Below, one piece after another: positions 10,565 to 63,000 of a stretch of 64,000 nucleotides of DNA (the first letter of the stretch is position 1; the number at the start of each line of letters is the position of its first letter). The position numbers and the translations under genes were made by a program. Source of the DNA: Aquimarina aquimarini (GTDB taxonomy: Bacteria; Bacteroidota; Bacteroidia; Flavobacteriales; Flavobacteriaceae); assembly GCF_900299535.1 (NCBI RefSeq), contig NZ_OMKE01000006.1, forward strand, positions 62,001 to 126,000, written 5' to 3'. Below the pieces are notes generated by a model. It did not search any database and was not told the origin of the DNA. It worked only from the letters and a program-made list of their open reading frames with translations.

Positions 10565-10578
10565 TACTCATATCATCT

Positions 10579-10606: not shown

Positions 10607-10620
10607 AATATTTCAAAACC

Positions 10621-12457: not shown

Positions 12458-12462
12458 TTCCG

Positions 12463-12535: not shown

Positions 12536-12743
12536 ATAAGTGATTGCGGGTGCAAATTTAAAACTTTCTTTCATCTCTGCAAACATTTTTTTAATTTATT
12601 TTATTTTATTTCACTTCTACGGTTTCAAAAACAAAATAACAGGCTTTAAAATATAAACTTCTGTTAAGCGTTTCCTAAAAAAAACAAGGTTAAAGTATTT
12701 TTATTACTAAATTCGCCACACGTTATATAACCTAACAATTCTT

Positions 12744-15700
12744 ATGAGTACATTCAACTTTACCAAGTGGAATAAAATAACAGGATGGATCGTTTTTGCG
12801 ATTGCATTATGTGTTTACGGAATGACTGTAGAGCCTACTGCTAGTTTTTGGGATGCAGGAGAATATATTGCTACTTCATCAAAATTACAAGTTGGCCACC
12901 CTCCTGGAGCGCCTTTATTTCAAATGATAGGAGCTTTTGCTTCTTCTTTTGCAACAGATCCAACTCAAATTGCATTAATGGTAAATATGACATCTGCTTT
13001 TGCAAGTGCTTTTACTATTTTATTCATGTTTTGGTCAATAACCATTCTTGTAAAAAAGATAACTACAAAAGAAGAAGAACTGACCAGCGGAAAAGCGATT
13101 GCAATTTTAGGTAGTGGACTTGTTGGATCATTAGCTTTTACATTTACAGATAGTTTTTGGTTTAATGCTGTTGAAGCAGAGGTGTACGCCATGGCTACCT
13201 GTATTCTATCTGTACTTTTCTATCTAGGGTTATTATGGGAAAGAGATATGCATACTCCAAGGGGAAATAAATGGTTGATATTGATCTCCTTTATTGTTGG
13301 ACTCTCTTTTGGTGTTCACTTTATGGGACTACTATCAATTCCTGCAATCGGATTACTATATTACTTCAAGAACTATAAAGAGATTACTGTCAAAAATTTT
13401 ATAATTGCTAATATTACAGTAGTTCTCATACTACTATTTATATTCAAGCTTTTATTGCCCTCTACATTAAAATTCTTTGGTATTGCCGAAGTCTTTTTTA
13501 TAAACACTATCGGCTTGCCGTTTAACTCAGGAACTATCATTGCAGGGCTTATAATAATTGCTGTTTTCTACTTCAGTATAAAATACACTAGAGAAAAAAA
13601 CTACACGCAAGTAAACACTTTGCTACTTTGCATTATGTTTATACTTATTGGGTTTTCTAGCTGGATTATGCTACCTATTCGTGCAAATGCAGGAACTGTA
13701 ATAAACGAAAACAACCCAAACAATGCTCGAGAGCTTCTAGCATATTACAACCTTGAACAATATCCTGAAACTCATCTTTTTTATGGCCCACAATTTACAG
13801 AGATATACGCTCATTTAGATAAAGATAATCCGTATAGAGACGCAAAACCTAAATATGAAAAAGACCTTAAATTAGGAAAATACATTATTGTAAACGATTG
13901 GGAAAATGCAAGGCAAAATCTTGATGATGCTCATAAAGCTATTTTACCAAGAATGTGGAGTACAGAGCACATTGCTAACTACATGGAGTTTACAGGGCCT
14001 ATTAAATTCACTATAAAACCTGAATACCAAAGTGAAGAAGAGCTTCTTAAAGCTGTTACACAATTTAAAAGAGAATATGCTTCAGGCAAACTAGATAATG
14101 ACGATTACAATAAATTTCTACAATCTTTTGGTAATTATATTGATGTAGAGAAACCTTCCTTTTGGGACAATGTCGTCTATCTATTTGATTACCAAATGGG
14201 CTATATGTATTGGCGTTATTTTATGTGGAATTTTGTAGGAAGACAAGATGATAACCAAGGTAAGCTTACTGATCTTGAAGGAAACTGGTTAAGCGGTATT
14301 ACTTTTATTGATGAGATGAGACTAGGTTCTCAAGATAACCTACCTACTGATGTGCTTAAAAACAAAGCAAGGAATACTTATTACTTCTTGCCATTACTTC
14401 TTGGGTTAATCGGTTTTATGTTTTTATTACAACATGACAAGAAAAAATTCTGGGTTCTACTTGTCTTTTTCTTATTTACTGGATTGGCTCTAAAAGTATA
14501 TCTTAACGAAAGGCCTTTTGAACCAAGAGAACGAGACTATGCGCTCGTAGGATCTTTTTATGTATTTGCCATCTGGATTGGGATTGGAGTATATGCTTTA
14601 TTTGATTTATTCAAAAAACACCTAAACCCTAAAATACTTGCTCCAGTAATTACCACAGTATGCTTGCTAGCTGTACCTGTTCTATTGGCCTCTCAAAACT
14701 GGGATGACCACGATCGATCTAATCGATATACTGCACAGGCAATGGCAAAGATGTATCTACAGTCCTGTCAAGAAGATGCCATACTATTTACCATAGGAGA
14801 TAATGACACATTTGCTCTATGGTATGCACAAGAGATCGAAGGCTACCGTACAGATGTTAGAACCGTAAACACAAGTCTTTTTGCTACAGATTGGTACATC
14901 GACCAAATGAAAAGAGCTGCATACAAAGGAAAACCTATTCCTTCTCAGTTAACCCACGAATTCTATAGATACGGAAACAATGATGCAATCTATTATAAGA
15001 AATACCCTAAAATACCCGACACCTTAGACATAAAATCTTGGATGAGTTTTATTCAGAGTGACAACCCTGTTACTAAAGGAGATTTACAAAGTGGTAAAAA
15101 GGTAAATACATTTCCAGCTAAACACATACGAATCCCTGTTGATAAAAAAGCTGTATTAAAAAATGGTATTGTTGCTCAAAAAGATGCACATCTTATTGTT
15201 CCTTATATCGACATTCACTTAAAAGGGGATCTGTTATTCAAAAACCGCCTTTTAATGTTAGATATTATTGCCAACAACAACTGGGAACGACCTATTTATT
15301 TTACAGGAGGTAGCTATGGCGACGATGATTTTTTATGGATGAAAGACTACTTACAACTAGACGGGGTCACCTTTAAACTAGTCCCTATTCGTACCAAGGT
15401 AAACCCTCGAAACCCTTTTGAAATGGGTCGAATAGATACAGATCTTATGTATAAGAATGTAACTAGTTGGGATTGGGGTAATAGTAACGATCCAAATATA
15501 TACCATGATCCAGAAACTAGAAAAAATGCGATTACATACCGTAGTAATCTAGCTAGGCTTGTAGAAACCTTAATTCAAGAAAGTAAAAAAGATAAAGCCA
15601 AAGAAATTCTGGATTTGGCAATGGATAAAATGCCGATAGAATATTATGAGTATTACACTTTGATAGAACCTTATATCACTGGATACTATGAAGTAGGTGA

Positions 15701-49472: not shown

Positions 49473-49652
49473 CTTTACTTTATTTGTTTCACTTTAATTA
49501 TAGAAACAAAACTATAATGGGTCTTTTATTTTATAAAGTAGATTCTGTCGAAACAGGATTAAAAAAAGATGAAACGGGTTTTTTTGACGATAGAATTATT
49601 TCTCAAAAAACTAAAGAAACTGAATACGTAATATATACTCTCTTCAGCCAAT

Positions 49653-50414
49653 TTACTCAGGCAATCGATTTTTCATTTTCAACAACTCTTGTTCTATAAG
49701 CAAGATTTTGTCTTCTACATCATCTCCAAAATCAGGTATTCTTCTAAAAAAAACATATCGTACTCTCCACATTTCTTTGATATCAGAGAGTGCATATTTT
49801 TCATCTTCTATATTTTTGTGATCAGCTCTTAGGATAACATTTCCTTTTGCTACATAAAGTCTTCTAAAAATTAGTTTCTCCTCTACTACTACAAAAACCA
49901 ATGTTCCATTATTTAACTTTTTTATTACCGTAGAAGGCACTTTTTCTCCAACAACAATATCCTTGGGATAAAACCCTTTATCATGTGAAGTCATTTCGAG
50001 ATTACTCACGGTATATCCTCTAAATTCTTTAGTAACATTCAAAGGTAATTGTAAAGTAGGCAACTCTTTTACAAACCCTTCCTTATCATATAAAGCAATA
50101 TAATCATGAGCTGTATTTTCTGTTATACAAGGAATACTGGCAAATTTCTCTCTTTTCAGATCCTCGGCATATGTAGTAAGATCACCTTTGAACTTCAACA
50201 GTTGATTTACTGTCAACTCACTTGTTAGCAAATCATCAATTGCAATGCTAAAATAATTAGCTACTTTAATTAGCGTTTCTATTTTGGGTTCACTTCTCCC
50301 CTCCTCATATGCCCCCAGAGTTCCTCTTTTTAAATCAAATAGCTCTGCAAAGCTTTGCTGGCTTAACCCTTTTACACTTCTAATTTTCTTTATATTTTTT
50401 CCAAAAAAAGACAT
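49653..50414 (-). CDS. XRE-family regulator with S24-like C-terminal domain
   Basis: A 253-residue regulator from the ATG at 50414; an in-frame ATG at 50435 would add seven residues before the conserved MSFFGKNIKKIRSVKGLSQQ. The helix-turn-helix is at about 6-60 (LSQQSFAELFDLKRGTLGAYEE). The C-terminal half (about 115-210) has the beta pattern of LexA/CI S24-like domains (GFYPKDIVVGEKV, GTLVFVVVEEKLIFRRL), but where S24 peptidases have G-D-S-M it reads SHDKGFYP, so the catalytic Ser is missing and self-cleavage is unlikely. It is divergent from the PspA-flotillin operon; repeated TGCTAA motifs in the shared region may be its operators. Confidence 0.87.
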   Translation of the reverse strand: MSFFGKNIKKIRSVKGLSQQSFAELFDLKRGTLGAYEEGRSEPKIETLIKVANYFSIAIDDLLTSELTVNQLLKFKGDLTTYAEDLKREKFASIPCITENTAHDYIALYDKEGFVKELPTLQLPLNVTKEFRGYTVSNLEMTSHDKGFYPKDIVVGEKVPSTVIKKLNNGTLVFVVVEEKLIFRRLYVAKGNVILRADHKNIEDEKYALSDIKEMWRVRYVFFRRIPDFGDDVEDKILLIEQELLKMKNRLPE

Positions 50415-50739
50415 TTTTGCTAATTTTATTTGCAATTATAAAAAATAATTGTACTTTTACACTAACAATATTAGCTAATACTTTTTAAAAATGCTAATTT
50501 TAGTAGAAATACTTTTTACACACCGCCCCCATCATAATAAAAAAGATAATTACTAAAATTTTTAGCAACTCAATCTTGTTATTAACTTTAAAATCATCAT
50601 TACTATGATAGTCATTGCGTATTACCTTGTTAATTTAACTATAAACTATATAGAGAATCTATACTGCTTTTTGTAATATTGATATACCCCAAACAACATT
50701 AAAACAATTACTAATTATCACAAAAAAATAAACCACCAA
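50415..50739. promoter_or_regulatory. divergent promoter region with repeated operator-like motif
   Basis: Three copies of a motif: TGCTAATTTTA at 50418-50428, TGCTAATTTTAGTA at 50492-50505, and TACTAAAATTTTTAGCA at 50551-50567 (the same motif inverted, with three extra bases). A fourth partial, TTAGCTAATA, is at 50471-50480. The first overlaps the start region of the XRE gene. They probably bind the XRE/S24-like regulator and may set expression of both sides. Confidence 0.6.
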
Positions 50740-51135
50740 ATGCAAGATTATTTTCAACTGGTAAAAGATTATTTACTACAACTCAACTATAATATCACTC
50801 ATGAAAATATAAGCGAAGGCATTATTATGATTAGTAAAGAAAATGAAGGAATCAAAAATATGATTCTAGGTGTTGCACCTCCTATTCTAATTATGGAACA
50901 ACATATTTTCAATATTAAAAATAAGAATGAAGTTATCTACAGAAATTTACTTCAGAAAAATCGAGACATTGTACACGGGGCCTTTGTTTTGGATGAGTCT
51001 GGCGAGAAAGTAATCTTTAGAGACACACTAAGAATAGAAAACTTAGATCTCAATGAATTAGAAGGTTCCTTAAACTCTCTAGGCTTACTTCTAAGTGAAT
51101 ATTCTGACCAAATTATAAATTATTCAAAATACTAA
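50740..51135 (+). CDS. YbjN / Tir-chaperone-like small protein
   Basis: A 131-residue protein with an alpha-beta-beta-beta-alpha plan (YFQLVKDYLLQLNYNITHEN, GIIMISKENEG, NMILGVAPPILIMEQHIF, LEGSLNSLGLLLSEYSDQI) that fits the YbjN / type III secretion chaperone-like fold. No signal peptide. It is first in the operon, 6 bases before the PspA-type gene, so co-translation and physical contact are likely. By analogy it would be a small helper that binds a partner in the operon. The family call is by pattern, not firm. Confidence 0.7.
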   Translation: MQDYFQLVKDYLLQLNYNITHENISEGIIMISKENEGIKNMILGVAPPILIMEQHIFNIKNKNEVIYRNLLQKNRDIVHGAFVLDESGEKVIFRDTLRIENLDLNELEGSLNSLGLLLSEYSDQIINYSKY

Positions 51136-51141
51136 AATACT

Positions 51142-51858
51142 ATGAACTTTTTTAAACGATTATTTAAAATAGGAGAAGCCGAAGCACATTCTGCAATTGA
51201 TAAAATGGAAGACCCCATAAAGATGACTGAACAAGGAATACGGGATATGAAAACAGATTTAGAAAAAAGTCTTGAAGCATTGGCGCAAGTAAAAGCATTG
51301 GCTATAAGAGCTAAAAATGATACAGAAGAATTTGTTCTGAAAGCAGAAGATTACCAACAAAAAGCAATGCTTATTCTAAAAAAAGTTCAAAATGGAGACA
51401 TAGACTCTGCAGAAGCAGATCGATTAGCCAAAGAAGCGCTCATAAAAAAAGAAGAAAACTTGCAACATAGTAATCGTAGCAAAGGTGAATCAGAAAAATT
51501 TGACACTTCTGTTAATCAATTAGAGAAAAATATACAAACGATTAAACAGAATATTAGTAAGTGGGAAAATGAGCTCAAAACATTAAAAGCACGCGTAAAA
51601 GTATCTACAGCTACAAAAAATGTAAATAAACAAATGGCAGAAATAGATAGTTCTAGCACTGTCTCTATGCTCGAACGAATGAAAGACAAGGTCAATCAAG
51701 AAGAAGCATTAGCAGATGCTTATGGAGACATCGCAAACACTTCAAAATCTATTGACGACGAAATTGATGCTGCTGTAGACACTACAAAAACAAGTGCAGA
51801 ACTTGATTTGGCCAAATTAAAAGAACAACTGGGTATTGACTCCTCAAAAAAAGAATAG
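51142..51858 (+). CDS. PspA/IM30 family protein
   Basis: A 238-residue coiled-coil protein with the PspA opening MNFFKRLFKIGEAEAHSAIDKMEDPIKM (split here at its first residues) and long helices without membrane segments. PspA/IM30/Vipp1 proteins are related to ESCRT-III and form rods or rings on stressed membranes. The C-terminus (from about 200: DDEIDAAVDTTKTSAELDLAKLKEQLG) corresponds to the last helix. Its partners here, a flotillin and an AAA+ protein, are those expected for membrane binding and remodelling. It appears cytoplasmic and peripheral. Confidence 0.92.
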   Translation: MNFFKRLFKIGEAEAHSAIDKMEDPIKMTEQGIRDMKTDLEKSLEALAQVKALAIRAKNDTEEFVLKAEDYQQKAMLILKKVQNGDIDSAEADRLAKEALIKKEENLQHSNRSKGESEKFDTSVNQLEKNIQTIKQNISKWENELKTLKARVKVSTATKNVNKQMAEIDSSSTVSMLERMKDKVNQEEALADAYGDIANTSKSIDDEIDAAVDTTKTSAELDLAKLKEQLGIDSSKKE

Positions 51859-52129
51859 TACAAAATATATACTATCCAATGGTAATAAATATTAGGCTAA
51901 TGACATTAACACTCAGGATAACAACAAGAAATGATAAAAATCGATTCTATGTCTATCAAAATAGCCTAATGATTGTATAAACAAAACCCCATAAAACAAT
52001 GTGATACTCACGAATAGTTATCACTATATACAGTGACCTTATAGCGGGTAATATTATCTATTTTTGACATATTAGGATTATGATAAAACTCGTATAAAAG
52101 TTTCTAATTAATACTAAAAAAATGAACCC
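51859..52129. other. spacer between the PspA gene and the YqiJ-like gene
   Basis: No gene. A 9-bp inverted repeat ATTAGGCTA (51891-51899) and TAGCCTAAT (51962-51970), 62 bases apart, may form a long stem; no T run follows. A three-codon ORF ATG-AAC-CCT-TGA at 52122-52133 runs into the next gene. Confidence 0.45.
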
Positions 52130-52834
52130 TTGAAAGAATTATTTGACATAGCAATCTCAATAGTCAATCTACCATTGACTGTTCTCTTTGGATTACTGAT
52201 CGTATATTGGTTTTTGACCACACTTACAGGACTGGATTTAGATTTCTTTGATGCAGATATAGATATCGATACAGATGTTGATATAGATTCAGATTTTGAC
52301 GCCAGAGGTAATTTGGATATTCCTGAAATATCCAATACAGAGGTAAAAAAAGAAGATGTAATTCGCCGCCGAGGTAAATTGAATTTTTTTCAAGTATTCT
52401 TGATTTATTTTAATTTTGTAGGGCTTCCATTCATGTTCACTTTTTCTTTCTTTGTATTATTCTGGTGGGCAATCACAATGGCAGGAACCTCTATAACACA
52501 TAGCTATAATAATGATTTTGGATTTGTATTTTTCTTTGGAGGAATCATCCCAGCATTATTTCTGACTAAAATTTTTACAATTCCTTTCAAAAGATTCTTT
52601 ACCAATTTCAATAATAAAGGAGAGGATGCACTAGAATTATTAGGCAGACAAGGAATTTTACAAAGTCCTATTTCTGGAGAAAAAGTAACAACATTAGAGA
52701 TAAAAATTCAATCTGATCCCATCAAAGTAATGGTAAAATCTAAAAACGGAATAGAAATTCCTGCCAATACTCCTGTAGAGATCATAAATCAAGTAAAAAA
52801 TAAACAACTTTATATCATTCAACCTTTAAATTAA
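52130..52834 (+). CDS. YqiJ-like membrane protein with C-terminal OB-fold
   Basis: A 234-residue membrane protein of the YqiJ type (partner of the flotillin YqiK in E. coli). There is a membrane helix at about 12-34, an acidic stretch with Asp at every second residue from 41 to 57 (DADIDIDTDVDIDSDFD), two more helices (about 90-115 and 133-155), and an NfeD-like OB-fold domain (170-234: GRQGILQSPISGEKVTTL). The start as called is TTG at 52130. An ATG eight bases upstream at 52122 is in another frame and stops at once; one extra T would join them. The flotillin gene follows after 5 bases. Confidence 0.82.
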   Translation: MKELFDIAISIVNLPLTVLFGLLIVYWFLTTLTGLDLDFFDADIDIDTDVDIDSDFDARGNLDIPEISNTEVKKEDVIRRRGKLNFFQVFLIYFNFVGLPFMFTFSFFVLFWWAITMAGTSITHSYNNDFGFVFFFGGIIPALFLTKIFTIPFKRFFTNFNNKGEDALELLGRQGILQSPISGEKVTTLEIKIQSDPIKVMVKSKNGIEIPANTPVEIINQVKNKQLYIIQPLN

Positions 52835-52839
52835 TATTT

Positions 52840-54939
52840 ATGAGCAACCTTGCAAATATTGCCATCATAGTGGTGGTAGCCTTAGTACTTCTCATCGTAC
52901 TATACTTTATAATAATCGCTATATTCTACAGAAAAATTCCGCAAGGAGAATCTCTAGTTCGTACTGGTTTTGGGGGTACATCTGTAGCTTTTGACAAAGG
53001 ATTATATGTAATCCCTGTATTGCATAAAATTGAAATCATGGATATTTCTATCAAAAAAATAGAAATCGAACGAACGGGTGTCAATGGGTTAATTTGTAAA
53101 GATAATATCAGAGCAGATATCAAAGTAGCTTTCTTTGTACGAGTGAATAAATCTGTTGAAGATATTATTAATGTTGCTCAAACTATTGGTTGTAACCGCG
53201 CATCAGAAATAGACACACTACGTAGTCTTTTTGATGCCAAATTCTCTGAAGCACTAAAAACAGTTGGAAAAAAGTTCGAATTTGTTGAATTGTATGAAGC
53301 CAGAAGAGAATTTAGAGATGAAATCATAAATATTATAGGAACTGACCTTAATGGTTATATTCTGGATGACTGTGCTATTGATGATCTAGAACAAACATCA
53401 CTAAATGTCTTAAAACCTGATAACATCCTTGATTCTGAAGGGATCAAAAAAATAACAGAACTCACCGCAGCTCAAAATATCAAGTCTAACCTTATCAAAC
53501 GTGACGAAGAAAAAGTAATTCGTAAACAAGATGTAGAAGCAAGAGAAGCAATTCTTGAATTAGACAAACAATTAGCCGAAAAAGAAGAACAACAAAGACG
53601 AGAAATCTCTAATATTAAATCTCGCGAAGAAGCAGAAATTTTAAAAGTTGCCGAAGAAGAACGGTTAAAATCTGAAACTGCTCGTATTGCTACTGAAGAA
53701 AAAGTAAAAGTAGCAGAAGAAAACATGGAACGCCAGGTTATTGTAGCAGCCAAAAACAAACAACGTACAGATGCTGTAGAAACAGAAAGAGTAGAAAAAG
53801 ACAGAATGCTAGAAGCTACTGAACGTGAACGTATTGTAACATTAGCACAAATCGAAAAAGAAAAAGTAGTTGAAGTAGAGAAGAAAAATATTCAGGATGT
53901 GATTCGGGATCGAGTTACACTAGAAAAAGGGGTCGTTGAAGAGCAAGAAAACATGAAAGACATTGAAGCTTTTAAAACTGCTGATCGAGAGAAACAAGTA
54001 AAAATTACAATTGCCGAAGCCAATGCACAAGAAGCTTTGATCACCACTATCAAAGCTGCAGAAGCTCAAAAAGAAGCTGCCAAGCAAAAAGCCGAAGAAA
54101 TCAATATCGAAGCACAAGCTCAAAAAGAAGCTAGTGAAAAAGAAGCAGAGGCTCGTAAAACATTGGCAGAAGCACAAGCCAAAGAAGAAGCCACTCTAGG
54201 AATGTCTGAAGCGCAAGTTATGCACGCCAAAGCAGATGCCAGAGAACGAGAAGGACTGGTTGAAGCAAACATTATAGAAAAGACAGCCAAAGCAGAAGCC
54301 GCAGGAACACTTGCCAAAGCAGAAGCAGTAAAAGAAGAAGGAGTTGCAGAAGCACATGTAATTAAAGAAAAAGCGCTTGCAGAAGCAGAAGGTAACAAAG
54401 AAATTGCACTTGCAGAAGCTGTTGGAATCGAAGAAAAAGCCGAGGCCATGAAAAAATTAGATGGTGTAGGTAAAGAGCACGAAGAATTCAAACTACGTCT
54501 AGACAAAGAATTACAAGTAGACCTTGCACATATCAATATACAAAAAGAAATTGCTGATGCACAAGCAGAAGTAATCGGAGAAGCTCTTAAAGCCGCAAAT
54601 ATTGATATTGTAGGAGGAGAAACCATGTTCTTTGATCAAATTGTAGGTCAAATCACAAAAGCAAAAGGAATCGACAGACTTGTAAAACATTCTGATAATA
54701 TACAAGATGTAAAAGATGCAATATTAGGTAGTGATGACGTAAAAGGAAATCTATTGCAAAAAATTAAAGAATTTGCGACTCAATACGGAATCTCTTCAGA
54801 GGATATCAAAAACCTTACAATAGCCAATCTTTTATTAGAATTAAAGCAAAAGACCACCGATCCATCAGAAAACAACATGTTTACAAACCTAATTAATCTT
54901 GCCAAAGGATTAGGGTTGTCTGATAAAAAACTGAAATAA
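52840..54939 (+). CDS. flotillin-like protein, YqiK type
   Basis: A 699-residue SPFH-family protein. One membrane anchor at 5-27, the SPFH/band 7 domain at about 35-210 (GESLVRTGFGGTSVAFDKG, ADIKVAFFVRVNKSVEDI, FVELYEARREFRDEII), then a very long Ala/Glu/Lys-rich coiled coil to about 570 with repeats such as EAEARKTLAEAQAKEEA and AEAVKEEGVAEAHVI, and a C-terminal domain (FFDQIVGQITKAKGIDRLVK). Flotillins build membrane-microdomain cages. It is directly downstream of the YqiJ-like gene and upstream of a strong hairpin and the AAA+ gene. The Ala/Glu bias makes antisense frames look open; these are shadows. Confidence 0.92.
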   Translation: MSNLANIAIIVVVALVLLIVLYFIIIAIFYRKIPQGESLVRTGFGGTSVAFDKGLYVIPVLHKIEIMDISIKKIEIERTGVNGLICKDNIRADIKVAFFVRVNKSVEDIINVAQTIGCNRASEIDTLRSLFDAKFSEALKTVGKKFEFVELYEARREFRDEIINIIGTDLNGYILDDCAIDDLEQTSLNVLKPDNILDSEGIKKITELTAAQNIKSNLIKRDEEKVIRKQDVEAREAILELDKQLAEKEEQQRREISNIKSREEAEILKVAEEERLKSETARIATEEKVKVAEENMERQVIVAAKNKQRTDAVETERVEKDRMLEATERERIVTLAQIEKEKVVEVEKKNIQDVIRDRVTLEKGVVEEQENMKDIEAFKTADREKQVKITIAEANAQEALITTIKAAEAQKEAAKQKAEEINIEAQAQKEASEKEAEARKTLAEAQAKEEATLGMSEAQVMHAKADAREREGLVEANIIEKTAKAEAAGTLAKAEAVKEEGVAEAHVIKEKALAEAEGNKEIALAEAVGIEEKAEAMKKLDGVGKEHEEFKLRLDKELQVDLAHINIQKEIADAQAEVIGEALKAANIDIVGGETMFFDQIVGQITKAKGIDRLVKHSDNIQDVKDAILGSDDVKGNLLQKIKEFATQYGISSEDIKNLTIANLLLELKQKTTDPSENNMFTNLINLAKGLGLSDKKLK

Positions 54940-54946
54940 AACAGCA

Positions 54947-54981
54947 TTGATTTCTCTCCTTGACTCAAGGAGAGAAATCAA
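54947..54981 (+). terminator. perfect 16-bp hairpin between flotillin and AAA+ gene
   Basis: TTGATTTCTCTCCTTG (54947-54962) and CAAGGAGAGAAATCAA (54966-54981), loop ACT. The T run after it is poor (TCTTATTTG), so it may be an attenuator or an RNA-stability element rather than a full stop. Confidence 0.6.
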
Positions 54982-55098
54982 TCTTATTTGCAAAGACACT
55001 CTTGTCTTTACTTATCAAAAAAGGTACTATTTGTTTCTTATTCAAAAAAAGAAACTAGCTCATTAAATCACTCTGATTAAACACTAGAGTATCATCAT

Positions 55099-58000
55099 AT
55101 GCAAGAAGAAAACAACAATCAACATACTCAATTGGATGGGGGCACTTATGAGATCATCCAAAACCGTTTGCAAAAACATAAAGGAGAACTCCAAAATCGC
55201 CTTATACGACTTAATGACGCACGTAAAGATGTTTTTGGTAATGTAGAAACCAAGTTAATTGCAAATAACCGCATTAATACAGAACATAACTGTATAGCTC
55301 AAGATATTGTTACCATTGGTCAATATTGTCTTTTTGGATATAATGTTCATTTTGGGTTACGTACCGAGATTACACTTGCAGATGTATTTAGTATCTATAC
55401 TTATACCGATGATCATTTTGTTGCAAAGCCTTTAGACCTAATCAATGATACTATCTTCATTGGTGAATTCACTAATCTCTATAAATATTATCGCAATACC
55501 GTATTTTCAAAATTTGCAATTGTTGGCAACTATTTGCATATGGTATTTCAGCTCAGTGATAGTATCACAGATATCAAAACCTTTAAATGGTTGATTAATG
55601 AAGGACAACTTACCTATGTAGATAATCGCAGTGAGCATGAATTCAAGTTTCCTAAACAACATGAGTTTAATTGGACAGAAGTTACCCGAGATATGCACCG
55701 CTACGGCACACACCCTCATATCTCTATCCTTGATAAAGTTTTTGTTGAAACTGTAGGAGGTGATTTAACCATCAAAATAGAAGATAACACAGATCAAGGT
55801 AAAGGTATTCTTGATGAAGCTGTAGAGCACATAGATCAGACACTAGATGATGGACAATATCGCTTTGCAGACTTAGGAAATCTTATTGCGTTAGAAATCA
55901 AACCTTTTCAAGAAAACCCCCGTCATTTTGTATACAACCATAAAATACAGGAAGTCAAAAAAATTGACAGCATAAAAGATTCCTGTATATTGCTCCCTGA
56001 TGATCAGGGAATCATATATCCCAACGGATATTATCTGCAATCTGGAGATTTTAAGCTATTTACCAATGAGGTATCCAATGTTAAGTTTCAGGAAAAAATA
56101 AGTTCTCCCAACGGAGAAGATTTCTTATATGTATTTTATCAAAGTAATAAGGGGTTATACACCCTTATGTCGTATAATATCATAGAACAAGAAGTAAAAA
56201 CACCTATTATCTGTAATGGATTTACAATTCTGGAACATGGCGAATTATGCTATTTCAGAACCGAAAATGAACAAACAAAACACCATGTAATACAAATTTG
56301 GCAAACCCCTTTTATAAAAGGAGATGTATTACCATCAAAACATACCGACACCCTTCTTTACAAAATTGGCAATAAAGACATAGTCAAAGCCATGGCAGAG
56401 TGTAATGCGCTGATCACTCTGCTTAGTAAAGAAGATAATTATGACGGATTATATGACGATCTCGCTAAATTTTCTAATGATATTATTGACAGTTATTATT
56501 GGATTAGAGAAGAAGAGACATATAGACTTGATACTCCTCTAGAAGAAATTAATGGCGCCGCCAATGCCGCGATTGATGAATTTGAAAAAGTAGTTCAATT
56601 ACGTAAAACAGCTTCTACTATTACTAAAGAAACTGAGGATAAAGCAACACATATTTTTGGTAAAATAAAAAGTAGCTCTTTTCGTGCTATCGATGATTTT
56701 GTATCTGTTCTATCGCAATTACGCACCTTAAGAGGAGAAGTAATAGGACTTAATGATATTAGATATGTAGACAAGCAATTTATTGAAACCTTAGAAACAG
56801 AAATTGCAGAGCAATCAGAGAAAATATCACAACGATGTGTTCAGTTTTTATTAGATGATAAATCACTACTCCCCTATCATGATCGAGTAGATGAAAAACA
56901 AATCGAACTCGATAAAATCAACAAAGTAATCAATGCAAAAAAACTAGAAGAAGAGGTAACTCAAATTGCTACCGATCTAGAAATGTTGATCGACATTGTT
57001 TCCAACCTACAGATAGAAGACACCTCACATTCTACAAAAATTATCGATAATATCTCTCTGATTTTTGCAACCATCAATCAGCTTAAAGCAGGGATCAAAA
57101 ACAAAATCAAGTCTCTAGGAAGCAAAGAAGCTAACGCAGAATTTGCTGCACAGATTAAACTTGTAGATCAAAGTATTATCAATTACCTTGATATTGCCAA
57201 TACACCAGAAAAGACTGATGAGTTATTAAACAAAATATCTATTCAATTAGAAGATCTAGAAGGGCGATTTGCCGATTTTGAAGATTTTATCACACTCATT
57301 ATAGAAAAGCGAGAAGAAGTTTATAATGCTTTTGAAGCTCGCAAAAATAGCCTAATAGAAGCCAGAAACAAAAAGGCTGTGGCACTAGAAAATGCCGCAA
57401 AAAGAATCTTAAAAGGAGTCACAAAAAAAGCACTCAGCTTTGCGTCTGCACTAGATATCAACGGGTATTTTGCATCAGATTTAATGATCAATAAATTGAG
57501 GGATATCATATCTCAATTAAAAGAATTAGATGATGCTGGCAAAGCAGAAGCCATTGAAACTGCCTTAAAAGTTGCCAAAGAAGACGCTACACGAAAACTA
57601 AAAGACAAACAAGATCTCTATGAAGATGGAGAAAACATTATCAAACTAGGTAAACACAAATTTGGTGTAAATAAACAACCATTAGATTTAACCATCATAT
57701 ACAAAAATAACACGCTGGCATATCACCTTACAGGAACCGATTTTTATAAAGAGATCACCAATGAGGTTTTACTAAAATCAAAGAAATACTGGGATCAAGA
57801 GTTAATTTCAGAAAATCAATACATTTATCGAGCGAGCTACCTGGCTTATAAAATCTATACCACCTATAACCAAAACACAAATCAGACTGATAATCTTGTT
57901 AATGTATCACAATCTACAACAGAAATAACAAACCGAGATCTTACATCATTCAACGAAAAAGAGTTACTAGAACTTGTAAAATCTGAAAGCAGTAAAAATT

Positions 58001-60063
58001 ATGCAGAGGGGTATATAAAGGGAGTTCATGATATTGATGCTTGCAAAATTCTTAAAGTATTAATCACCTTAGATCACGATTTGGGGTTACTACGATTCAC
58101 ACCAAACACCAGAGCTCTTGCACAATATTTCTGGTACAGTCAGAATCCCGATAAACAAACGTATTGGAACACTACAATTAAAGCTTCTGGAGAAGTATTA
58201 GACGTTTTTCCTGATAGTGATGAATATCACAAAGTAATCACCCATCTAGAATCAGAAATCCTTGATTCAGAACTACTCAAAAACCTGATTCAAGAAACCA
58301 ACAACACAAAAGAGATCACGAATAATATTGCAACTTATCTGTTTAACGAACTACAAAACAATCACACCTTTTGTATTAGTCAAACTGCAAATGAACTTTC
58401 TGAAACTTTTATTGCTACACTCAAAAAGAAAAAAGTATTTGTCAAATTTAAAGACGCTCTTCAATTAGACAACAAAACGCGCACCAATGGAAACACTAAT
58501 TGGAATGATAGAATAAATCTTGCCTTACAATGGGTTACTTCTTACATAAAAACGCATCATCCATCCCAGATTCAATACGCTCATGAAGTTGTCTCTGTCT
58601 TACTATTTAAAGACGAATCCACCTCAGAAATCATCCATGTTACCCCTTCACAAGCCATCGATGACCTAAAAGGAAGTCACAAAACCATTGATCAAGGTGT
58701 ATTCGATTTTAATTACCATAGTTTTATTTCGACACTAAAAGAGTATACAAAAATAGAAGTCCCTGCTTTTAATGCCTATCGAGAAGCAAAACATAAAGTA
58801 ACCGAGGAATTAAAAGAAGACCTCAAGCTAAGTGAATTCAAACCCAAAGTCCTCTCTTCGTTTGTAAGAAACAAATTAATTGACCAAGTATACCTTCCTT
58901 TATTTGGAGATAACCTATCCAAACAACTAGGTAGTGTGGGCGAGAATAAACGTACCGATAGAATGGGTATGTTGTTACTAATATCTCCTCCTGGGTATGG
59001 TAAAACTACACTTATGGAGTATATGGCAAATAGACTGGGATTAGTATTTATGAAAATTAATGGGCCTGCAATTGGTCATGAAGTTACTTCTGTTGATCCA
59101 ATGTCTGCAAATAATGCTGCTACTAGAGAAGAGTTAAAAAAACTCAATCTTGCTTTCGAGATGGGAAACAATGTGATGCTATATCTTGATGATATCCAAC
59201 ACTGTAATCCAGAGTTTTTGCAAAAATTCATTTCATTGGCAGACGGAACCAGAAAAATAGAAGGAGTATATGATGGTAACCCAAAAACCTATGACCTACG
59301 TAGCAAAAGATTTTGCGTAATCATGGCTGGAAATCCATATACAGAAAGTGGTGATAAATTTCAGATCCCTGATATGTTAGCCAATCGTGCTGATATTTAT
59401 AATCTGGGAGACATAATTGGTGATACTGCTGATCTTTTCAAATTAAGCCTCATCGAGAATGCACTGACCTCTAATCCCGTACTGCACCAATTAAGCAGTA
59501 AATATTTTGACGACATCTACCAGCTTATTGAGATTGTTGAAAAAGGTTCTCAAGAAGGCATTGAACTCAAAGGAAATCATACCAAACAAGAAATACAAGA
59601 TTATATTTCTGTACTCAAAAAAGTAGTCACAATAAGAGACACGGTGCTCAAAGTAAACGAAACCTATATAAAATCTGCCGCGATGGAGGATGCATATCGC
59701 ACAGAACCTTCATTCAAACTACAAGGATCCTATAGAGATATGAGCAAGCTAGTCTCTAAGGTGGTTCCTATAATGAATGAGAAAGAATTACAAACACTTT
59801 TACTCTCTCATTATGAAAATGAATCTCAAACATTGACCAGCGCAGCCGAAGCCAACTTGCTCAAATATAAAGAAATGACTCAAATCATTACAAATGAAGA
59901 GCATACTCGTTGGGAAATTATCAAAGAAACTTTTATCAAGAATAATAAATTAAAAGGCTTTGGAGACAAAAACGAAATGGCACAAGTACTAGCCCAAATG
60001 ATGCAATTTAGTGATCATCTAGCAGGAATACAGAAGGTCTTAAAAAAAGGATTAGAAAAGTGA
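55099..60063 (+). CDS. giant AAA+ ATPase (annotated elsewhere as DNA repair ATPase)
   Basis: A 1654-residue cytoplasmic protein. Residues 1 to about 420 look beta-rich, perhaps a propeller-like domain (LTYVDNRSEHEFKFPKQHEFNW); about 450-870 are helical, coiled-coil forming; about 880-1230 are of unknown type; an AAA+ module follows at about 1270-1480 with Walker A SPPGYGKTTLMEYMA (from 1296), Walker B VMLYLDDIQ (about 1363) and sensor-type VIMAGNPYTESGDKFQIP, close to MoxR-like ATPases. The family name in databases, DNA repair ATPase, has little behind it that I know of. The operon with PspA and flotillin suggests an engine that remodels membrane-bound coiled-coil assemblies, as Vps4 does with ESCRT-III. 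Confidence 0.88.
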   Translation: MQEENNNQHTQLDGGTYEIIQNRLQKHKGELQNRLIRLNDARKDVFGNVETKLIANNRINTEHNCIAQDIVTIGQYCLFGYNVHFGLRTEITLADVFSIYTYTDDHFVAKPLDLINDTIFIGEFTNLYKYYRNTVFSKFAIVGNYLHMVFQLSDSITDIKTFKWLINEGQLTYVDNRSEHEFKFPKQHEFNWTEVTRDMHRYGTHPHISILDKVFVETVGGDLTIKIEDNTDQGKGILDEAVEHIDQTLDDGQYRFADLGNLIALEIKPFQENPRHFVYNHKIQEVKKIDSIKDSCILLPDDQGIIYPNGYYLQSGDFKLFTNEVSNVKFQEKISSPNGEDFLYVFYQSNKGLYTLMSYNIIEQEVKTPIICNGFTILEHGELCYFRTENEQTKHHVIQIWQTPFIKGDVLPSKHTDTLLYKIGNKDIVKAMAECNALITLLSKEDNYDGLYDDLAKFSNDIIDSYYWIREEETYRLDTPLEEINGAANAAIDEFEKVVQLRKTASTITKETEDKATHIFGKIKSSSFRAIDDFVSVLSQLRTLRGEVIGLNDIRYVDKQFIETLETEIAEQSEKISQRCVQFLLDDKSLLPYHDRVDEKQIELDKINKVINAKKLEEEVTQIATDLEMLIDIVSNLQIEDTSHSTKIIDNISLIFATINQLKAGIKNKIKSLGSKEANAEFAAQIKLVDQSIINYLDIANTPEKTDELLNKISIQLEDLEGRFADFEDFITLIIEKREEVYNAFEARKNSLIEARNKKAVALENAAKRILKGVTKKALSFASALDINGYFASDLMINKLRDIISQLKELDDAGKAEAIETALKVAKEDATRKLKDKQDLYEDGENIIKLGKHKFGVNKQPLDLTIIYKNNTLAYHLTGTDFYKEITNEVLLKSKKYWDQELISENQYIYRASYLAYKIYTTYNQNTNQTDNLVNVSQSTTEITNRDLTSFNEKELLELVKSESSKNYAEGYIKGVHDIDACKILKVLITLDHDLGLLRFTPNTRALAQYFWYSQNPDKQTYWNTTIKASGEVLDVFPDSDEYHKVITHLESEILDSELLKNLIQETNNTKEITNNIATYLFNELQNNHTFCISQTANELSETFIATLKKKKVFVKFKDALQLDNKTRTNGNTNWNDRINLALQWVTSYIKTHHPSQIQYAHEVVSVLLFKDESTSEIIHVTPSQAIDDLKGSHKTIDQGVFDFNYHSFISTLKEYTKIEVPAFNAYREAKHKVTEELKEDLKLSEFKPKVLSSFVRNKLIDQVYLPLFGDNLSKQLGSVGENKRTDRMGMLLLISPPGYGKTTLMEYMANRLGLVFMKINGPAIGHEVTSVDPMSANNAATREELKKLNLAFEMGNNVMLYLDDIQHCNPEFLQKFISLADGTRKIEGVYDGNPKTYDLRSKRFCVIMAGNPYTESGDKFQIPDMLANRADIYNLGDIIGDTADLFKLSLIENALTSNPVLHQLSSKYFDDIYQLIEIVEKGSQEGIELKGNHTKQEIQDYISVLKKVVTIRDTVLKVNETYIKSAAMEDAYRTEPSFKLQGSYRDMSKLVSKVVPIMNEKELQTLLLSHYENESQTLTSAAEANLLKYKEMTQIITNEEHTRWEIIKETFIKNNKLKGFGDKNEMAQVLAQMMQFSDHLAGIQKVLKKGLEK

Positions 60064-60270
60064 TGAATTTATTAACTCGATTCATTCATTAGTGCTTCGT
60101 TATAAAGTTTGAAAGCACAGTAAAAAAAGGACTTAACTTAATGACATTGAACAGGGTATGGTCGTGTTTTATTTTGAAATATTAGACAAAAAGGCACAGT
60201 TTATTGAGTAAATTTAAGTTGGAAATGGTATTAGATCGCTTTATAAAATCCCCCATCATAAGGACAAGGA
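60064..60270. other. gap after the AAA+ gene
   Basis: No intact gene. A fragment of about 24 codons (LNDIEQGMVVFYFEILDKKA, ending at 60211) reads like protein but has no start. Confidence 0.3.
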
Positions 60271-60501
60271 TTATTTTATATCTTTTAACAATTCAGAAAC
60301 GGTAATTCCATGAATTTCGGCGATCATATACAAAGTATCAATTCTATAATTAACACCTTCTTCCCAACGCCAAACACTTTTGTTTTCAAGATTATTTTCA
60401 ATAGCAAAATTGCTATAACTCGTATATCCCGCATTAATTCGTAATTCTTTAATACGCTTACCAATCGCTTTATGCCTTTGTTTCTCTTCATCAGATGCCA
60501 T
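60271..60501 (-). CDS. small XRE-type transcription factor
   Basis: A 76-residue helix-turn-helix protein from the ATG at 60501; an in-frame ATG at 60534 would add eleven hydrophobic residues that the conserved MASDEEKQRHKAIGKRIKEL does not need. Motif: AGYTSYSNFAIENNLENKSVWRWE, then YRIDTLYMIAEIHGITVSELL. It is the size of phage- or plasmid-type regulators. It lies at the edge of the T6SS cargo genes and faces away from them. Confidence 0.78.
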   Translation of the reverse strand: MASDEEKQRHKAIGKRIKELRINAGYTSYSNFAIENNLENKSVWRWEEGVNYRIDTLYMIAEIHGITVSELLKDIK

Positions 60502-60885: not shown

Positions 60886-61362
60886 ATGAAAAAACTTGTT
60901 GCAACTGTAGGCGATCAACACACTTGCCCTATGTATAGCGGTACTACGCCCCATATAGGTGGTACAATTATTTCAGGCTCTCCCAATGTTTTTGTAAATG
61001 ACAGACCCGTAGCACGTATGGGTGATAAATGTATATGTGCCGATGGTTCAATATCAATTATCATTCAGGGAGAAACAGGAGTTTTGGTAAATGGTAAACC
61101 CATAGCCTATGTAGGCTGCATGACATCACATGGCGGGGTGATTACTACAGGACAACCCAATGTTATTATAGATATGGTTATGCCTGTAAAAACCTCTCAA
61201 TTGGTAACGATGCCTATAGAACTGATGCCACCAACACCCGCAAGAAATATGCTAGACAGAATTAATGCGCTTGCTAATTCTAAAAAAGCGAGAGAAGCAA
61301 AATCAAAACAACAAGAATTAAAAAAACACGGCTATCTGGTTGATGTTAATTTTAGTATGTAA
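60886..61362 (+). CDS. PAAR-domain protein (type VI secretion spike tip)
   Basis: A 158-residue protein. Residues 1-96 are a complete PAAR domain (VATVGDQHTCPMYSG, GGTIISGSPNVFVNDRPVAR, GDKCICADGS, GVLVNGKPIAYVGCMTSHGG, TTGQPNVII) with the His/Cys residues that bind the zinc at the tip. The last 60 residues are a Lys/Met/Pro-rich tail, probably a link to cargo or VgrG. Family knowledge: PAAR proteins sharpen the T6SS spike and carry effectors; Bacteroidota use the T6SSiii form. The effector gene begins 12 bases later. Confidence 0.94.
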   Translation: MKKLVATVGDQHTCPMYSGTTPHIGGTIISGSPNVFVNDRPVARMGDKCICADGSISIIIQGETGVLVNGKPIAYVGCMTSHGGVITTGQPNVIIDMVMPVKTSQLVTMPIELMPPTPARNMLDRINALANSKKAREAKSKQQELKKHGYLVDVNFSM

Positions 61363-61374
61363 ATCTGCTGTTTT

Positions 61375-63000
61375 ATGAAAATTGACTATCCTGTATTGCC
61401 TTCTTATGGCGATAACCCCACCGAAGAAGAAAAAGAACGCACTATAGCTAGCCATTACGGGCATCAAAATCGTGCAGGTTTCTTTCCTGTTGGTATGCAC
61501 AATACGTGGCATGGTGGCATCCATATAGAAGATTTTGGAACAAATGTTAGTGCTATTTCAGACGGTAGAATTATAGCCTATCGCATACCCGAAAAGTATC
61601 TACATGAAAAAGATAATAAAGATATTAAATACTCCAACGGGTTTATACTCATACAACATCATTATAAAACCCCAAAAGGGGTATCACTACGATTTTACAG
61701 CCTGTATATGCACCTGCAACCCAAAGCAGAAATGATAAAAAACAAAGGGAAAAGCATACCAGATCTCTATGCAAAATATACGACAAAAGTAAAAACAAAT
61801 ACGATTGCAAAAGGTACAAATGCAAGACGGTACACTCCTAAAGTAAAAGATAAATACTTATCTGATGGTCGTACCGAAGAATATAAATTTATACCCCGCG
61901 GAGGTGTGCTTACCGAAGAAAAAGACGTTCCCGAAGATCATTGGACTAAGACCGCAAAAGGGTATAAGGGGGTCTATAAAGTATGCACCTATGAAGGAAC
62001 AAAATATTGCGTTAATAAAAATTATCTACAGCATAAAGGTGATACTAACTGGATAGTAAAACACACCGCAAACGAAAAAGACAAGTTTGCAGATAGCCCC
62101 AAAGGAACAATGCTTTATAATACTATCAATGGCACATATATAGGTATGGAATGTGCAAAAACAGCACTTGAAGTTGAAAAAACCAAAGATAAAAACTGGT
62201 ATAAAATCAAAGGCAGAACACAGTATGTTATGGTTGTCAATTGTGAACCTCTTACTAAACAGATCAAAGACGATGTAGTATTTAATGAGGTACAGAATGT
62301 AGATATACCCATTACAGCAGGGCAGATTATTGGTGTTCCTAGTCGTTATGAATCTAATGCCTCAAAAGGATATACCACCGTGCATATAGAAGTCTTTACA
62401 GATGATAGTGGCATACACGAGTTTATCAATAATATACAGGACAATGACCGCACATCGTATGAAGTTGCCAAGGAGCAATTATTACAGGTGGGCAAACCTT
62501 GCAATTTTTTAAAAGCCGATACCAAAGTAAAAATCTATCAGATTAAAGACGACTATACCCAAATCGGGTTTGAAGATGTTTTTTGTGAAGCTGTAAATGG
62601 TACAGACATAGGGCATGAAGGCAGTATAAAAGTATATGTAAAAGGGCGTAAAACTACCAAAACCACTTACTCAATTAAAGATGGGAAATTTGAAGAAATA
62701 AACGCTAAAATGAATAACATATTACCCAATAAAGACGTATTGCTGTATTGGGTTGGCAAGCCCTCTAGTACCGTACGAAAAGTTGGTTACGGCACAGCGC
62801 AATCAGGCAAAAAATACTGGGTAAAAACCAGTGAAGTCATAGGCGAAGTAGGCAATTGGGTAACATTATCACAAGATATAAGCGTTGTGTATGAACAGCA
62901 ACCCACAGCAGACACCGCCGATAGTAAAGCTAAAAAACCGCAAAGATTAGAAAAAAAGCCACTACAAAAGATAGTGCCAATACAGAATGGTGGCTTATAA
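61375..63000 (+). CDS. T6SS cell-wall effector, first frame: M23-like peptidase domain
   Basis: A 541-residue first frame. The N-terminal 130 residues are M23/LytM-like: GMHNTWHGGIHIEDFGTNVS (H46; the Asp of H-x3-D is His, H50), SLYMHLQ near 115, and VHIEVF (about 340), the HxHxE-like last ligand. So metal binding is plausible but the Asp to His change should be kept in mind. The middle looks like SH3-type repeats (KGTNARRYTPKV, WIVKHTANEKDKFADSPKGT). The frame then ends with PLQKIVPIQNGGL, a tail out of keeping with the rest. The sequence goes on without a break in the -1 frame from the A_AAA_AAG heptamer at 62952-62958. The PAAR gene precedes it by 12 bases. Confidence 0.85.
   Translation: MKIDYPVLPSYGDNPTEEEKERTIASHYGHQNRAGFFPVGMHNTWHGGIHIEDFGTNVSAISDGRIIAYRIPEKYLHEKDNKDIKYSNGFILIQHHYKTPKGVSLRFYSLYMHLQPKAEMIKNKGKSIPDLYAKYTTKVKTNTIAKGTNARRYTPKVKDKYLSDGRTEEYKFIPRGGVLTEEKDVPEDHWTKTAKGYKGVYKVCTYEGTKYCVNKNYLQHKGDTNWIVKHTANEKDKFADSPKGTMLYNTINGTYIGMECAKTALEVEKTKDKNWYKIKGRTQYVMVVNCEPLTKQIKDDVVFNEVQNVDIPITAGQIIGVPSRYESNASKGYTTVHIEVFTDDSGIHEFINNIQDNDRTSYEVAKEQLLQVGKPCNFLKADTKVKIYQIKDDYTQIGFEDVFCEAVNGTDIGHEGSIKVYVKGRKTTKTTYSIKDGKFEEINAKMNNILPNKDVLLYWVGKPSSTVRKVGYGTAQSGKKYWVKTSEVIGEVGNWVTLSQDISVVYEQQPTADTADSKAKKPQRLEKKPLQKIVPIQNGGL
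62952..62958 (+). other. candidate -1 frameshift site A_AAA_AAG
   Basis: The seven bases lie in the right phase (codons GAA AAA AAG in the first frame) for a -1 shift to AAA AAA GCC, the frame that stays open to the window end. An in-frame stop at 62931-62933 in the second frame and one at 62998-63000 in the first limit the switch to this short stretch. A stem AAGCCAC/GTGGCTT (62956-62962, 62990-62996) follows. A lost A in a run of eight would look the same. Confidence 0.55.

What the first reader, a model, noticed from the sequence alone, without database searches (positions are those of the whole stretch)
50415..60063. PspA - YqiJ - flotillin - giant AAA+ operon under an XRE/S24-like regulator
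Five genes in one direction code for a YbjN/Tir-chaperone-like protein, a PspA/IM30 (ESCRT-III-like) protein, a YqiJ-like OB-fold membrane protein, a flotillin cage protein and a 1654-residue AAA+ protein. Pairs of these are known (YqiJ-YqiK; PspA with AAA+ partners), and comparative studies of PspA contexts have noted related sets. The whole together suggests a complete membrane-repair machine: scaffold, polymer and disassembly motor. The label DNA repair ATPase on the last gene does not fit the context. The regulator has lost the S24 catalytic Ser, so it may sense a signal by binding rather than by RecA-driven cleavage.
Basis: partly seen in the sequence, partly recalled or inferred. Interest (0 to 1): 0.75.

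Follow-up and report, generated by a model that had tools for sequence, protein, structure and literature searches.

The report
Flotillin-AAA+ membrane-stress operon with PspA
A marine bacterium carries a gene set, already described in print but not tested as a whole, that probably builds an ATP-driven machine on a flotillin scaffold to look after a damaged cell membrane; what is added here is its likely on/off switch and a possible tiny membrane peptide.

Summary
In detail: XRE regulator, CesT/Tir-like protein, PspA, YqiJ-like protein, flotillin and a 1654-residue AAA+ protein lie where stated. The five-gene set is already in print (Ravi et al. 2024, PMC11237479, section 19): a new member of a known kind.

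The "complete membrane-repair machine" is partly supported. Of 71 related loci with enough upstream sequence, 70 have flotillin+YqiJ beside the AAA+ gene, but only 44 have PspA. There PspA comes all-or-none with CesT and the regulator; this trio also occurs unlinked or alone. The AAA+ domain's best fold matches are MoxR proteins (CbbQ, NorQ), though sequence evidence on its clade is mixed. So a flotillin-scaffolded remodeller is likelier than a dedicated PspA-disassembly motor. No DNA-repair context was seen.

New here: the regulator lacks the S24 catalytic pair across its family; conserved GCTAA-N5-TTAGC operator candidates lie in 39 of 45 regulator-CesT intergenic regions; a 23-codon hydrophobic ORF upstream of CesT shows coding-type conservation in 9 of 9 Aquimarina sequences. 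Function is inference; the nearest experimentally studied relative is the Pseudomonas aeruginosa bac operon.

The parts
49653..50435 (-). Divergent XRE regulator with a non-catalytic S24-like C-terminal part; probable start at 50414
   Evidence: HTH_19 7.2e-11, S24 15.9 bits; alignment A4 of 15; present in 44 of 71 testable loci, always together with CesT and PspA there
50419..50433 (+). Operator candidate O1 GCTAATTTTATTTGC, just in front of the regulator's start
   Evidence: sequence re-read
50429..50459 (+). Possible Bacteroidota-type promoter (TTTG, 19 nt, TACTTTTA); consensus recalled, not tested
   Evidence: read from the sequence; inference
50461..50475 (+). Operator candidate O2 ACTAACAATATTAGC, 42 bp after O1
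50493..50507 (+). Weaker operator candidate O3 GCTAATTTTAGTAGA (2 mismatches)
50552..50566 (+). Operator candidate O4 ACTAAAATTTTTAGC
50605..50676 (+). Candidate 23-residue hydrophobic peptide gene (MIVIAYYLVNLTINYIENLYCFL)
   Evidence: kept without indels in 9 of 9 Aquimarina sequences; column-shuffle test; position and hydropathy in 29 of 40 loci
50740..51135 (+). CesT/Tir-like protein (CesT_Tir_1)
   Evidence: Pfam 3.4e-57; alignment A6
51142..51858 (+). PspA/IM30 (ESCRT-III superfamily); the only PspA found in the held genome
   Evidence: Pfam 1.5e-42; Vipp1 6zvr 5.4e-27 over profile 1-230; single match in G000
52130..52834 (+). YqiJ/NfeD-like membrane protein with an Asp-rich repeat after the first TM-like stretch
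   Evidence: relatives match YqiJ_N (7 of 16) and NfeD (2 of 16); alignment A3; hydropathy
52840..54939 (+). Flotillin-like SPFH protein with a long coiled-coil part
   Evidence: Band_7 in 3 of 17 relatives; A2 mean column identity 54%; QmcA chain weak, E 0.0028, coiled-coil part only
54946..54984 (+). Strong hairpin between flotillin and AAA+ genes (approximate ends)
   Evidence: -24.6 kcal/mol, z -6.57, 0 of 200 shuffles as stable
55099..60063 (+). 1654-aa AAA+ protein: helix, beta-propeller (about residues 51-404), coiled coil, helical middle, AAA+ (about 1240-1600), C-terminal helices
   Evidence: DUF3686 6e-178, DUF7902 2e-24, AAA_5 4.8e-8; models of residues 1-500 and 836-1654; fold matches; Walker A SPPGYGKTT in 55 of 55

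Best explanation
Two modules joined in one locus. (1) Core: YqiJ (membrane, OB-fold type) + flotillin + giant AAA+ protein. I think the flotillin and YqiJ form a membrane scaffold or cage that gathers damaged or unfolded membrane-associated clients, and the AAA+ protein, held on it through its propeller and coiled coil, works as a hexamer that remodels or releases those clients with ATP (inferred: scaffold, docking, hexamer, substrate). (2) Plug-in: regulator + CesT/Tir-like + PspA, in many relatives with a tiny hydrophobic peptide ORF. The CesT/Tir-like protein would hold or control PspA, and PspA polymers patch the membrane (inferred from other systems). The non-cleaving regulator would sit on GCTAA-N5-TTAGC sites around the divergent promoter and let go on an unknown signal (sites shown as conserved; binding inferred). 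Shown here: gene content, core/plug-in split, missing catalytic pair, conserved sites, coding-type conservation of the peptide, ATPase motifs, folds. Not shown: any function.
For: Flotillin+YqiJ beside AAA+ in 70 of 71 loci, plug-in in 44, all-or-none. Flotillin in 11 of 11 and YqiJ in 10 of 11 loci from other phyla. In 199 family genomes the flotillin profile (E<=1e-30) hits 18, all among the 19 with the AAA+ gene; the one lacking it (G079) has the AAA+ gene near a contig start. The trio is unlinked from the AAA+ gene in G033 and stands alone in G180. Operator candidates: 92 sites (<=1 mismatch) in 39 of 45 regions, shuffles mean 0.57, largest 4; 2 sites in 1 of 27 regulator-less loci; 41-43 bp between the first two in 35 of 45. 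ATPase motifs invariant. Literature: SPFH protein YdjI brings PspA to the membrane in B. subtilis (PMC8581546, abstract); FloA-NfeD holds unfolded proteins without ATP (PMC11222466, passages).
Against: No binding, expression or phenotype data for this operon. One locus with 10 kb upstream (L105) has the AAA+ gene without flotillin; two truncated loci (L096, L102) have 1.5 and 2.1 kb upstream and no flotillin piece. The 80 loci are the best of 541 and many are close relatives, so counts are not independent. The operator motif was read off the same sequences that were then counted; the genome as a whole has no excess (15+9 against control 16+11). The peptide is missing or not hydrophobic in 11 of 40 loci and absent in the unlinked modules L153 and L154. 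No docking between AAA+ and flotillin was tested. Deleting the P. aeruginosa homologue of the flotillin (paFlo3) had only a slight effect on biofilm (PMC13086221, passages).
Confidence: 0.45

Rival explanations
1. PspA-disassembly motor: the AAA+ protein works like Vps4, recycling PspA polymers on a flotillin platform.
For: PspA is strongly tied to the AAA+ gene in the family (16 of 19 against 2 of 180) and is in the same locus in 44 of 71. Ravi et al. compare PspA-AAA+ pairs with ESCRT-III/Vps4 (PMC11237479, passages). By sequence, p97/CDC48, Rix7 and RuvB chains match a short Walker-A stretch (best E 6.3e-5), and spastin appears among Foldseek matches (E 7.1e-5).
Against: 26 of 71 loci (14 Planctomycetota by title) have core without PspA. 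Best fold matches are MoxR proteins (CbbQ2 Z 17.8, NorQ 16.7). Pfam reports no MIT domain, which is absence of a match only.
Confidence: 0.2
2. Membrane analogue of the FtsH-HflKC arrangement: the flotillin cage encloses or caps the AAA+ ring and controls access of membrane-protein clients, without a protease.
For: An SPFH protein as constant partner of an AAA+ protein; HflK/C cages with FtsH are known (abstract starts in the listing).
Against: No TM-like stretch in the AAA+ protein, unlike FtsH; no model of the complex was made.
Confidence: 0.2
3. Conflict or anti-phage system: a MoxR-like ATPase with propeller and SPFH scaffold responding to membrane attack by phage.
For: Patchy distribution (19 of 199 family genomes; 10 of 395 in the phylum sample, the window's genome included in both). 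MoxR-vWA conflict systems with propeller or Band7 parts are in print (PMC7159879, passages).
Against: PADLOC gave no specific match beyond HTH and weak coiled-coil or P-loop matches; no toxin-like effector or vWA domain reported in the operon proteins by Pfam; no match in 50,697 phage records, which speaks only to phage carriage.
Confidence: 0.08
4. DNA-repair ATPase, as the Pfam and NCBI labels say.
For: Label only: Pfam description of DUF3686 and 'DNA repair ATPase' in annotated records.
Against: Constant partners are membrane scaffold genes; none of the 14 largest neighbour clusters printed was recognised, by eye, as a dedicated DNA-repair family (neighbours were not scanned with Pfam).
Confidence: 0.03

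Closest known systems
CesT/Tir-PspA + band-7/flotillin + propeller-AAA+ + YqiJ/YuaF operon (Ravi et al. 2024, mSystems, PMC11237479; example ANH61663.1)
   Same: The same five gene kinds; the paper also notes shorter operons of flotillin, YqiJ and sometimes AAA+ (section 19 read)
   Different: The paper's text has no mention of LexA, S24, XRE or operator (figures, tables and supplements not seen). The regulator, its sites, the peptide and the counts are from this work
Pseudomonas aeruginosa bacABCDEF (PMC2587700, PMC10948618, PMC13086221; passages)
   Same: CesT/Tir-like BacA, PspA-like BacB, short NfeD (PA14_16160), SPFH protein (PA14_16180), one operon by RT-PCR; loss of bacA/bacB affects biofilm and rhamnolipids
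   Different: BacA is a DUF2170 protein; a sigma-54 site is proposed; what BacE and BacF are was not seen in the passages and could not be checked here
Bacillus subtilis PspA-YdjGHI (PMC8581546, abstract)
   Same: SPFH protein and two membrane proteins needed to place PspA at the membrane
   Different: No AAA+ partner in the abstract; other membrane proteins
Staphylococcus aureus FloA-NfeD (PMC11222466, passages)
   Same: Flotillin with an NfeD partner
   Different: ATP-independent holding of unfolded proteins; no AAA+ partner described in the passages seen
MoxR AAA+ proteins NorQ/NorD and CbbQ/CbbO (listing)
   Same: Best fold matches of the AAA+ domain
   Different: They work with vWA partners; no vWA domain was reported by Pfam in these operon proteins
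Escherichia coli YqiJ-YqiK (PMC2636767, passages)
   Same: NfeD-like and SPFH gene pair
   Different: No AAA+ or PspA partner mentioned in the passages seen; DUF3686 was not found in the E. coli control genome

Membership tests
Ravi et al. 2024 group 1 operon | CesT/Tir-PspA dyad | tested here: met
   CesT_Tir_1 and PspA_IM30, adjacent
Ravi et al. [quoted passage not shown]
   N-terminal TM-like stretch; Band_7 in 3 of 17 relatives but not in the window protein itself; FloT model in 1 of 17
Ravi et al. [quoted passage not shown]
   Propeller match over residues 51-403 (DCAF1 WDR, Z 9.2, rmsd 4.5, 204 aligned; Foldseek TM only 0.24-0.29); AAA+ domain; coiled coil inferred from sequence
Ravi et al. 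2024 group 1 operon | YqiJ/YuaF three-TM protein | tested here: met
   YqiJ_N in 7 of 16 and NfeD in 2 of 16 relatives; three TM-like regions
ESCRT-III/Vps4 pair | ESCRT-III-superfamily polymer protein | tested here: met
   PspA/Vipp1 family, 6zvr 5.4e-27
ESCRT-III/Vps4 pair | Vps4-type AAA+ (classical clade, MIT domain) | tested here: inconclusive
   No MIT match in Pfam; best fold matches MoxR; short p97/Rix7 sequence matches
MoxR AAA+ | MoxR-type AAA+ fold | tested here: met
   CbbQ2 Z 17.8 (rmsd 4.0, 252 aligned), NorQ 16.7, dynein 15.3, midasin 13.5, ClpA 13.4. Pfam is mixed: AAA_5 4.8e-8 against AAA 7.4e-7 in the window protein, AAA ahead of AAA_5 in L136
MoxR AAA+ | vWA-domain partner in the operon | tested here: not met
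   Pfam scan of the operon proteins lists none; elsewhere in the genome not searched
LexA/CI-type S24 repressors (RecA-driven self-cleavage) | Catalytic Ser and Lys | tested here: not met
   By eye on A4 (motif recalled): Ser position is Glu in 11 of 15, Thr 1, Asp 1, unreadable 2; Lys position is Arg in 11 of 15, Lys 1, Asn 1, unreadable 2
Known anti-phage systems (PADLOC) | Specific PADLOC model match | tested here: not met
   Only generic HTH matches and weak matches such as LmuB, JetC and mad8
P. aeruginosa bac operon | Same AAA+ (DUF3686) as a bac gene | not testable with these tools

The most novel reading that the evidence does not exclude
The constant unit is a flotillin/YqiJ membrane cage with its own soluble, protease-free AAA+ remodeller, in effect a chaperone counterpart of FtsH-HflKC found across several phyla, onto which Bacteroidota plug a separately moving stress cassette: a non-cleaving S24-like repressor with phased operators, a tiny membrane peptide that may act as the sensor or anchor, a CesT/Tir-like keeper and PspA.
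Probability: 0.3. Interest if true: 0.75.

Novelty: new member of a known kind. Interest (0 to 1): 0.45.

Why it matters
PspA is the bacterial relative of ESCRT-III, and whether bacteria use an ATP-driven motor with it is open. This gene set offers a direct test, and the comparison here says which partner to test first: the motor follows the flotillin, not PspA. The operator candidates and the peptide give a defined switch to assay, and the misleading 'DNA repair ATPase' label on a family with hundreds of members could be corrected.

Tried and rejected
DNA-repair role: no such context found. Phage carriage: no match in phage records. Regulon beyond the operon: the site pattern has no excess in the held genome; one further match lies inside the regulator's own coding region (window 50247-50261). 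RNA families: none at gathering score in 49500-60500. Sequence search of the propeller part against solved structures: only one match, E 0.61. DUF2170 in the own genome: none. Literature: 'DUF3686' in 0 papers; 'DNA repair ATPase' with 'flotillin' in 0; 'PspA', 'Flavobacter' and 'flotillin' together in 1 unrelated paper; four or more of MoxR, AAA+, beta-propeller, flotillin, SPFH, PspA in 6 papers (5 listed), none of them titled on this operon except Ravi et al.. An early idea that the peptide is present in every module was dropped: missing or not hydrophobic in 11 of 40 and in L153 and L154. 'REG, CesT and PspA always together' holds for the 71 loci only: G016 has CesT-PspA without the regulator, pQBR103 has a DUF2170 protein and PspA without it.

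Full report
What is there. A divergent XRE regulator faces five genes in one direction: CesT/Tir-like, PspA, YqiJ-like, flotillin-like and a 1654-residue AAA+ protein. G+C of the five genes (34%) is that of the window (33%). The genome has one DUF3686 gene and one PspA.

Already in print. Ravi et al. 2024 (PMC11237479; [quoted passage not shown] Their text does not contain LexA, S24, XRE or operator; figures, tables and supplements were not seen. The gene set is therefore known; its function is not tested there in the parts I read.

Core and plug-in. A scan of genome contigs gave 541 relatives of the AAA+ protein; the best 80 were kept. Profiles built from the window proteins were run over their ORFs. 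Of 80 loci, 71 have at least 6.5 kb upstream: 44 have regulator, CesT, PspA, YqiJ and flotillin; 26 have YqiJ and flotillin only; 1 (L105) has none. Of the 9 shorter ones, 4 show flotillin and 5, with 0.2-2.1 kb upstream, do not. By record titles the 44 read as Bacteroidota (I did not look each up) and the 26 as 14 Planctomycetota, 9 Bacteroidota, one each Calditrichota, Desulfobacterota and unplaced; one of the 26 (L090) has only 2.3 kb before YqiJ. In plasmid-collection records, some of chromosome size, 12 held a homologue (33-46% identity); in the 11 fetched flotillin precedes the AAA+ gene in 11, YqiJ in 10, PspA stands upstream in 2. One of these, pQBR103, combines a DUF2170-PspA-DUF2491-DUF350-DUF1190-glutathionylspermidine synthase run with YqiJ-SPFH-AAA+.

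Phyletic profile. In 199 genomes of the window's family, the one of the window included, 19 have DUF3686. The flotillin profile at E<=1e-30 (my threshold) hits 18, all among the 19; the exception, G079, has the AAA+ gene near the start of a contig. PspA over the Pfam cut-off is in 18: 16 of the 19 and 2 of the other 180; four more genomes without the AAA+ gene have weak matches under the cut-off. Fisher's test gives 9e-19 for PspA and 1e-24 for flotillin, uncorrected for kinship. In G033 regulator-CesT-PspA lie on another contig than YqiJ-flotillin-AAA+; G180 has the trio and neither AAA+ nor this flotillin; G003 has PspA and CesT on another contig; G016 has CesT-PspA without the regulator, followed by other genes; G019 and G122 have the AAA+ gene and no CesT or PspA. 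In a phylum-wide draw, 10 of 395 genomes have DUF3686, G000 among them.

The AAA+ protein. Two models were made from alignments of 56 and 55 sequences: residues 1-500 (pLDDT 86.5, pTM 0.85) and 836-1654 (87.3, 0.76). The first holds a beta-propeller-like part whose best matches are WD40 propellers (DCAF1, Z 9.2, rmsd 4.5, 204 aligned); Foldseek agrees on the kind of fold with low TM-scores (0.24-0.29). The second holds an AAA+ domain whose best matches are CbbQ2 (Z 17.8) and NorQ (16.7), then dynein (15.3), midasin (13.5) and ClpA/B (about 13) (Foldseek order). Against a clean MoxR label: by sequence the profile matches p97, Rix7 and RuvB chains over a short Walker-A stretch, and Pfam AAA and AAA_5 trade places between members. 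Walker A (SPPGYGKTT) and sensor 1 (MAGNP) are identical in 55 of 55, and the DDIQH of Walker B and the Arg of LxNRAD are invariant in the same alignment, so the ATPase should work. Residues 500-836 were not modelled.

The regulator. In alignment A4 of 15 the HTH part is well conserved and the C-terminal part drifts. At the S24 serine position, read by eye against the recalled motif, 11 have Glu, 1 Thr, 1 Asp and 2 cannot be read; at the lysine position 11 have Arg, 1 Lys, 1 Asn, 2 unread. S24 is matched at E<=1 in 11 of 15.

Operator candidates. In the 45 regulator-CesT intergenic regions (window included), GCTAA-N5-TTAGC with at most one mismatch occurs 92 times in 39 regions; 100 shuffled sets gave a mean of 0.57 and at most 4; 27 regulator-less loci gave 2 sites in 1 locus. 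With up to two mismatches, 35 of 45 regions have two sites 41-43 bp apart, and 33 third sites lie 30-32 bp further. The motif was found in these same sequences and many are related, so the figures show conservation, not independent discovery. As outside checks, the stand-alone module of G180 (L154) has two one-mismatch sites, one identical to O1, and G003 (L155) has a perfect site in front of its regulator (read); in G033 (L153) one one-mismatch and three two-mismatch sites occur. No excess exists over the whole genome. Binding is not shown.

The peptide. Between regulator and CesT the window has a 23-codon ORF (50605-50676). Nine of nine Aquimarina sequences keep it without indels while the flanks have several. 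Pairwise substitutions at codon positions 1/2/3 are 204/153/316. Against 2000 column shuffles, 34 reach the observed number of synonymous codon differences, 0 the mean BLOSUM score, 11 have as few stops. Over all 40 loci with at least 150 bp, 29 have a hydrophobic ORF of 12-30 codons (mean Kyte-Doolittle >= 1.0) 15-110 bp upstream of CesT; shuffles mean 3.98, largest 10 of 200; reverse strand 4; regulator-less loci 1 of 27. It is missing or not hydrophobic in 11 of 40 and in L153 and L154. In Aquimarina its stop overlaps an invariant TTTTTGTAATATTG stretch, whose like also stands upstream of CesT where no peptide is seen; part of the conservation may belong to that element.

Mechanism. The constant partner of the AAA+ gene is the flotillin/YqiJ pair, so I place the motor on that scaffold. 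FloA-NfeD of S. aureus holds unfolded proteins without ATP (PMC11222466, passages); an AAA+ partner would add the ATP step. YdjI, an SPFH protein, is needed to bring PspA to the membrane in B. subtilis (PMC8581546, abstract), which fits PspA as an added effector. The P. aeruginosa bac operon has a CesT/Tir-like protein, PspA, short NfeD and SPFH protein in one transcript, and its bacA and pspA-like mutants are affected in biofilm and rhamnolipids (PMC10948618, PMC2587700, PMC13086221; passages); deletion of its SPFH gene alone lowers biofilm by about 20% only. Whether BacE is the AAA+ protein I could not check.

Verdict. Real, ordinary in the sense of already catalogued, and still untested. 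The additions here are the core/plug-in split with counts, the motor-domain assignment with its mixed evidence, the family-wide loss of the S24 catalytic pair, the operator candidates and the candidate peptide.

Noticed in passing
window 54946-54984: Very stable perfect-stem hairpin between flotillin and AAA+ genes (-24.6 kcal/mol, z -6.57), not followed by a long T run; may set the AAA+ level or protect the upstream transcript.
   Followed up: partly
window 60886-63000: PAAR-motif protein (Pfam 1.1e-22) followed by a 541-aa protein that by eye looks like an M23-type peptidase; suggests a secreted-effector pair downstream of the operon.
   Followed up: no
L056, L058-L061, L066 between PspA and YqiJ; several Aquimarina loci between flotillin and AAA+: Extra small genes inserted in the operon in Aquimarina relatives (a YbjQ-like protein by eye, an 83-aa TM-like protein, others), absent from the window, whose gaps there are 271 and 159 bp.
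   Followed up: partly
L029 9327-9758, L047 10168-10602, L057, L060, L076, L090: DUF559-type endonuclease-like ORFs (name by eye) between flotillin and AAA+ genes in distant loci.
   Followed up: no
L097, L108, L113, L127 near the operon: Phospholipase D (HKD)-like neighbour by eye; Ravi et al. note such a gene in proteobacterial versions.
   Followed up: no
window 52130-52834 and alignment A3: Asp-x-Asp repeats after the first TM-like stretch of YqiJ in several Bacteroidota, Planctomycetota and Calditrichota members; possible cation-binding segment.
   Followed up: no
window 50247-50261: A perfect operator-like site inside the regulator's own coding sequence.
   Followed up: no
L136 (pQBR103) 986-14190: A plasmid locus that joins two of the operon groups of Ravi et al. 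(polyamine group and flotillin-AAA+ group).
   Followed up: partly
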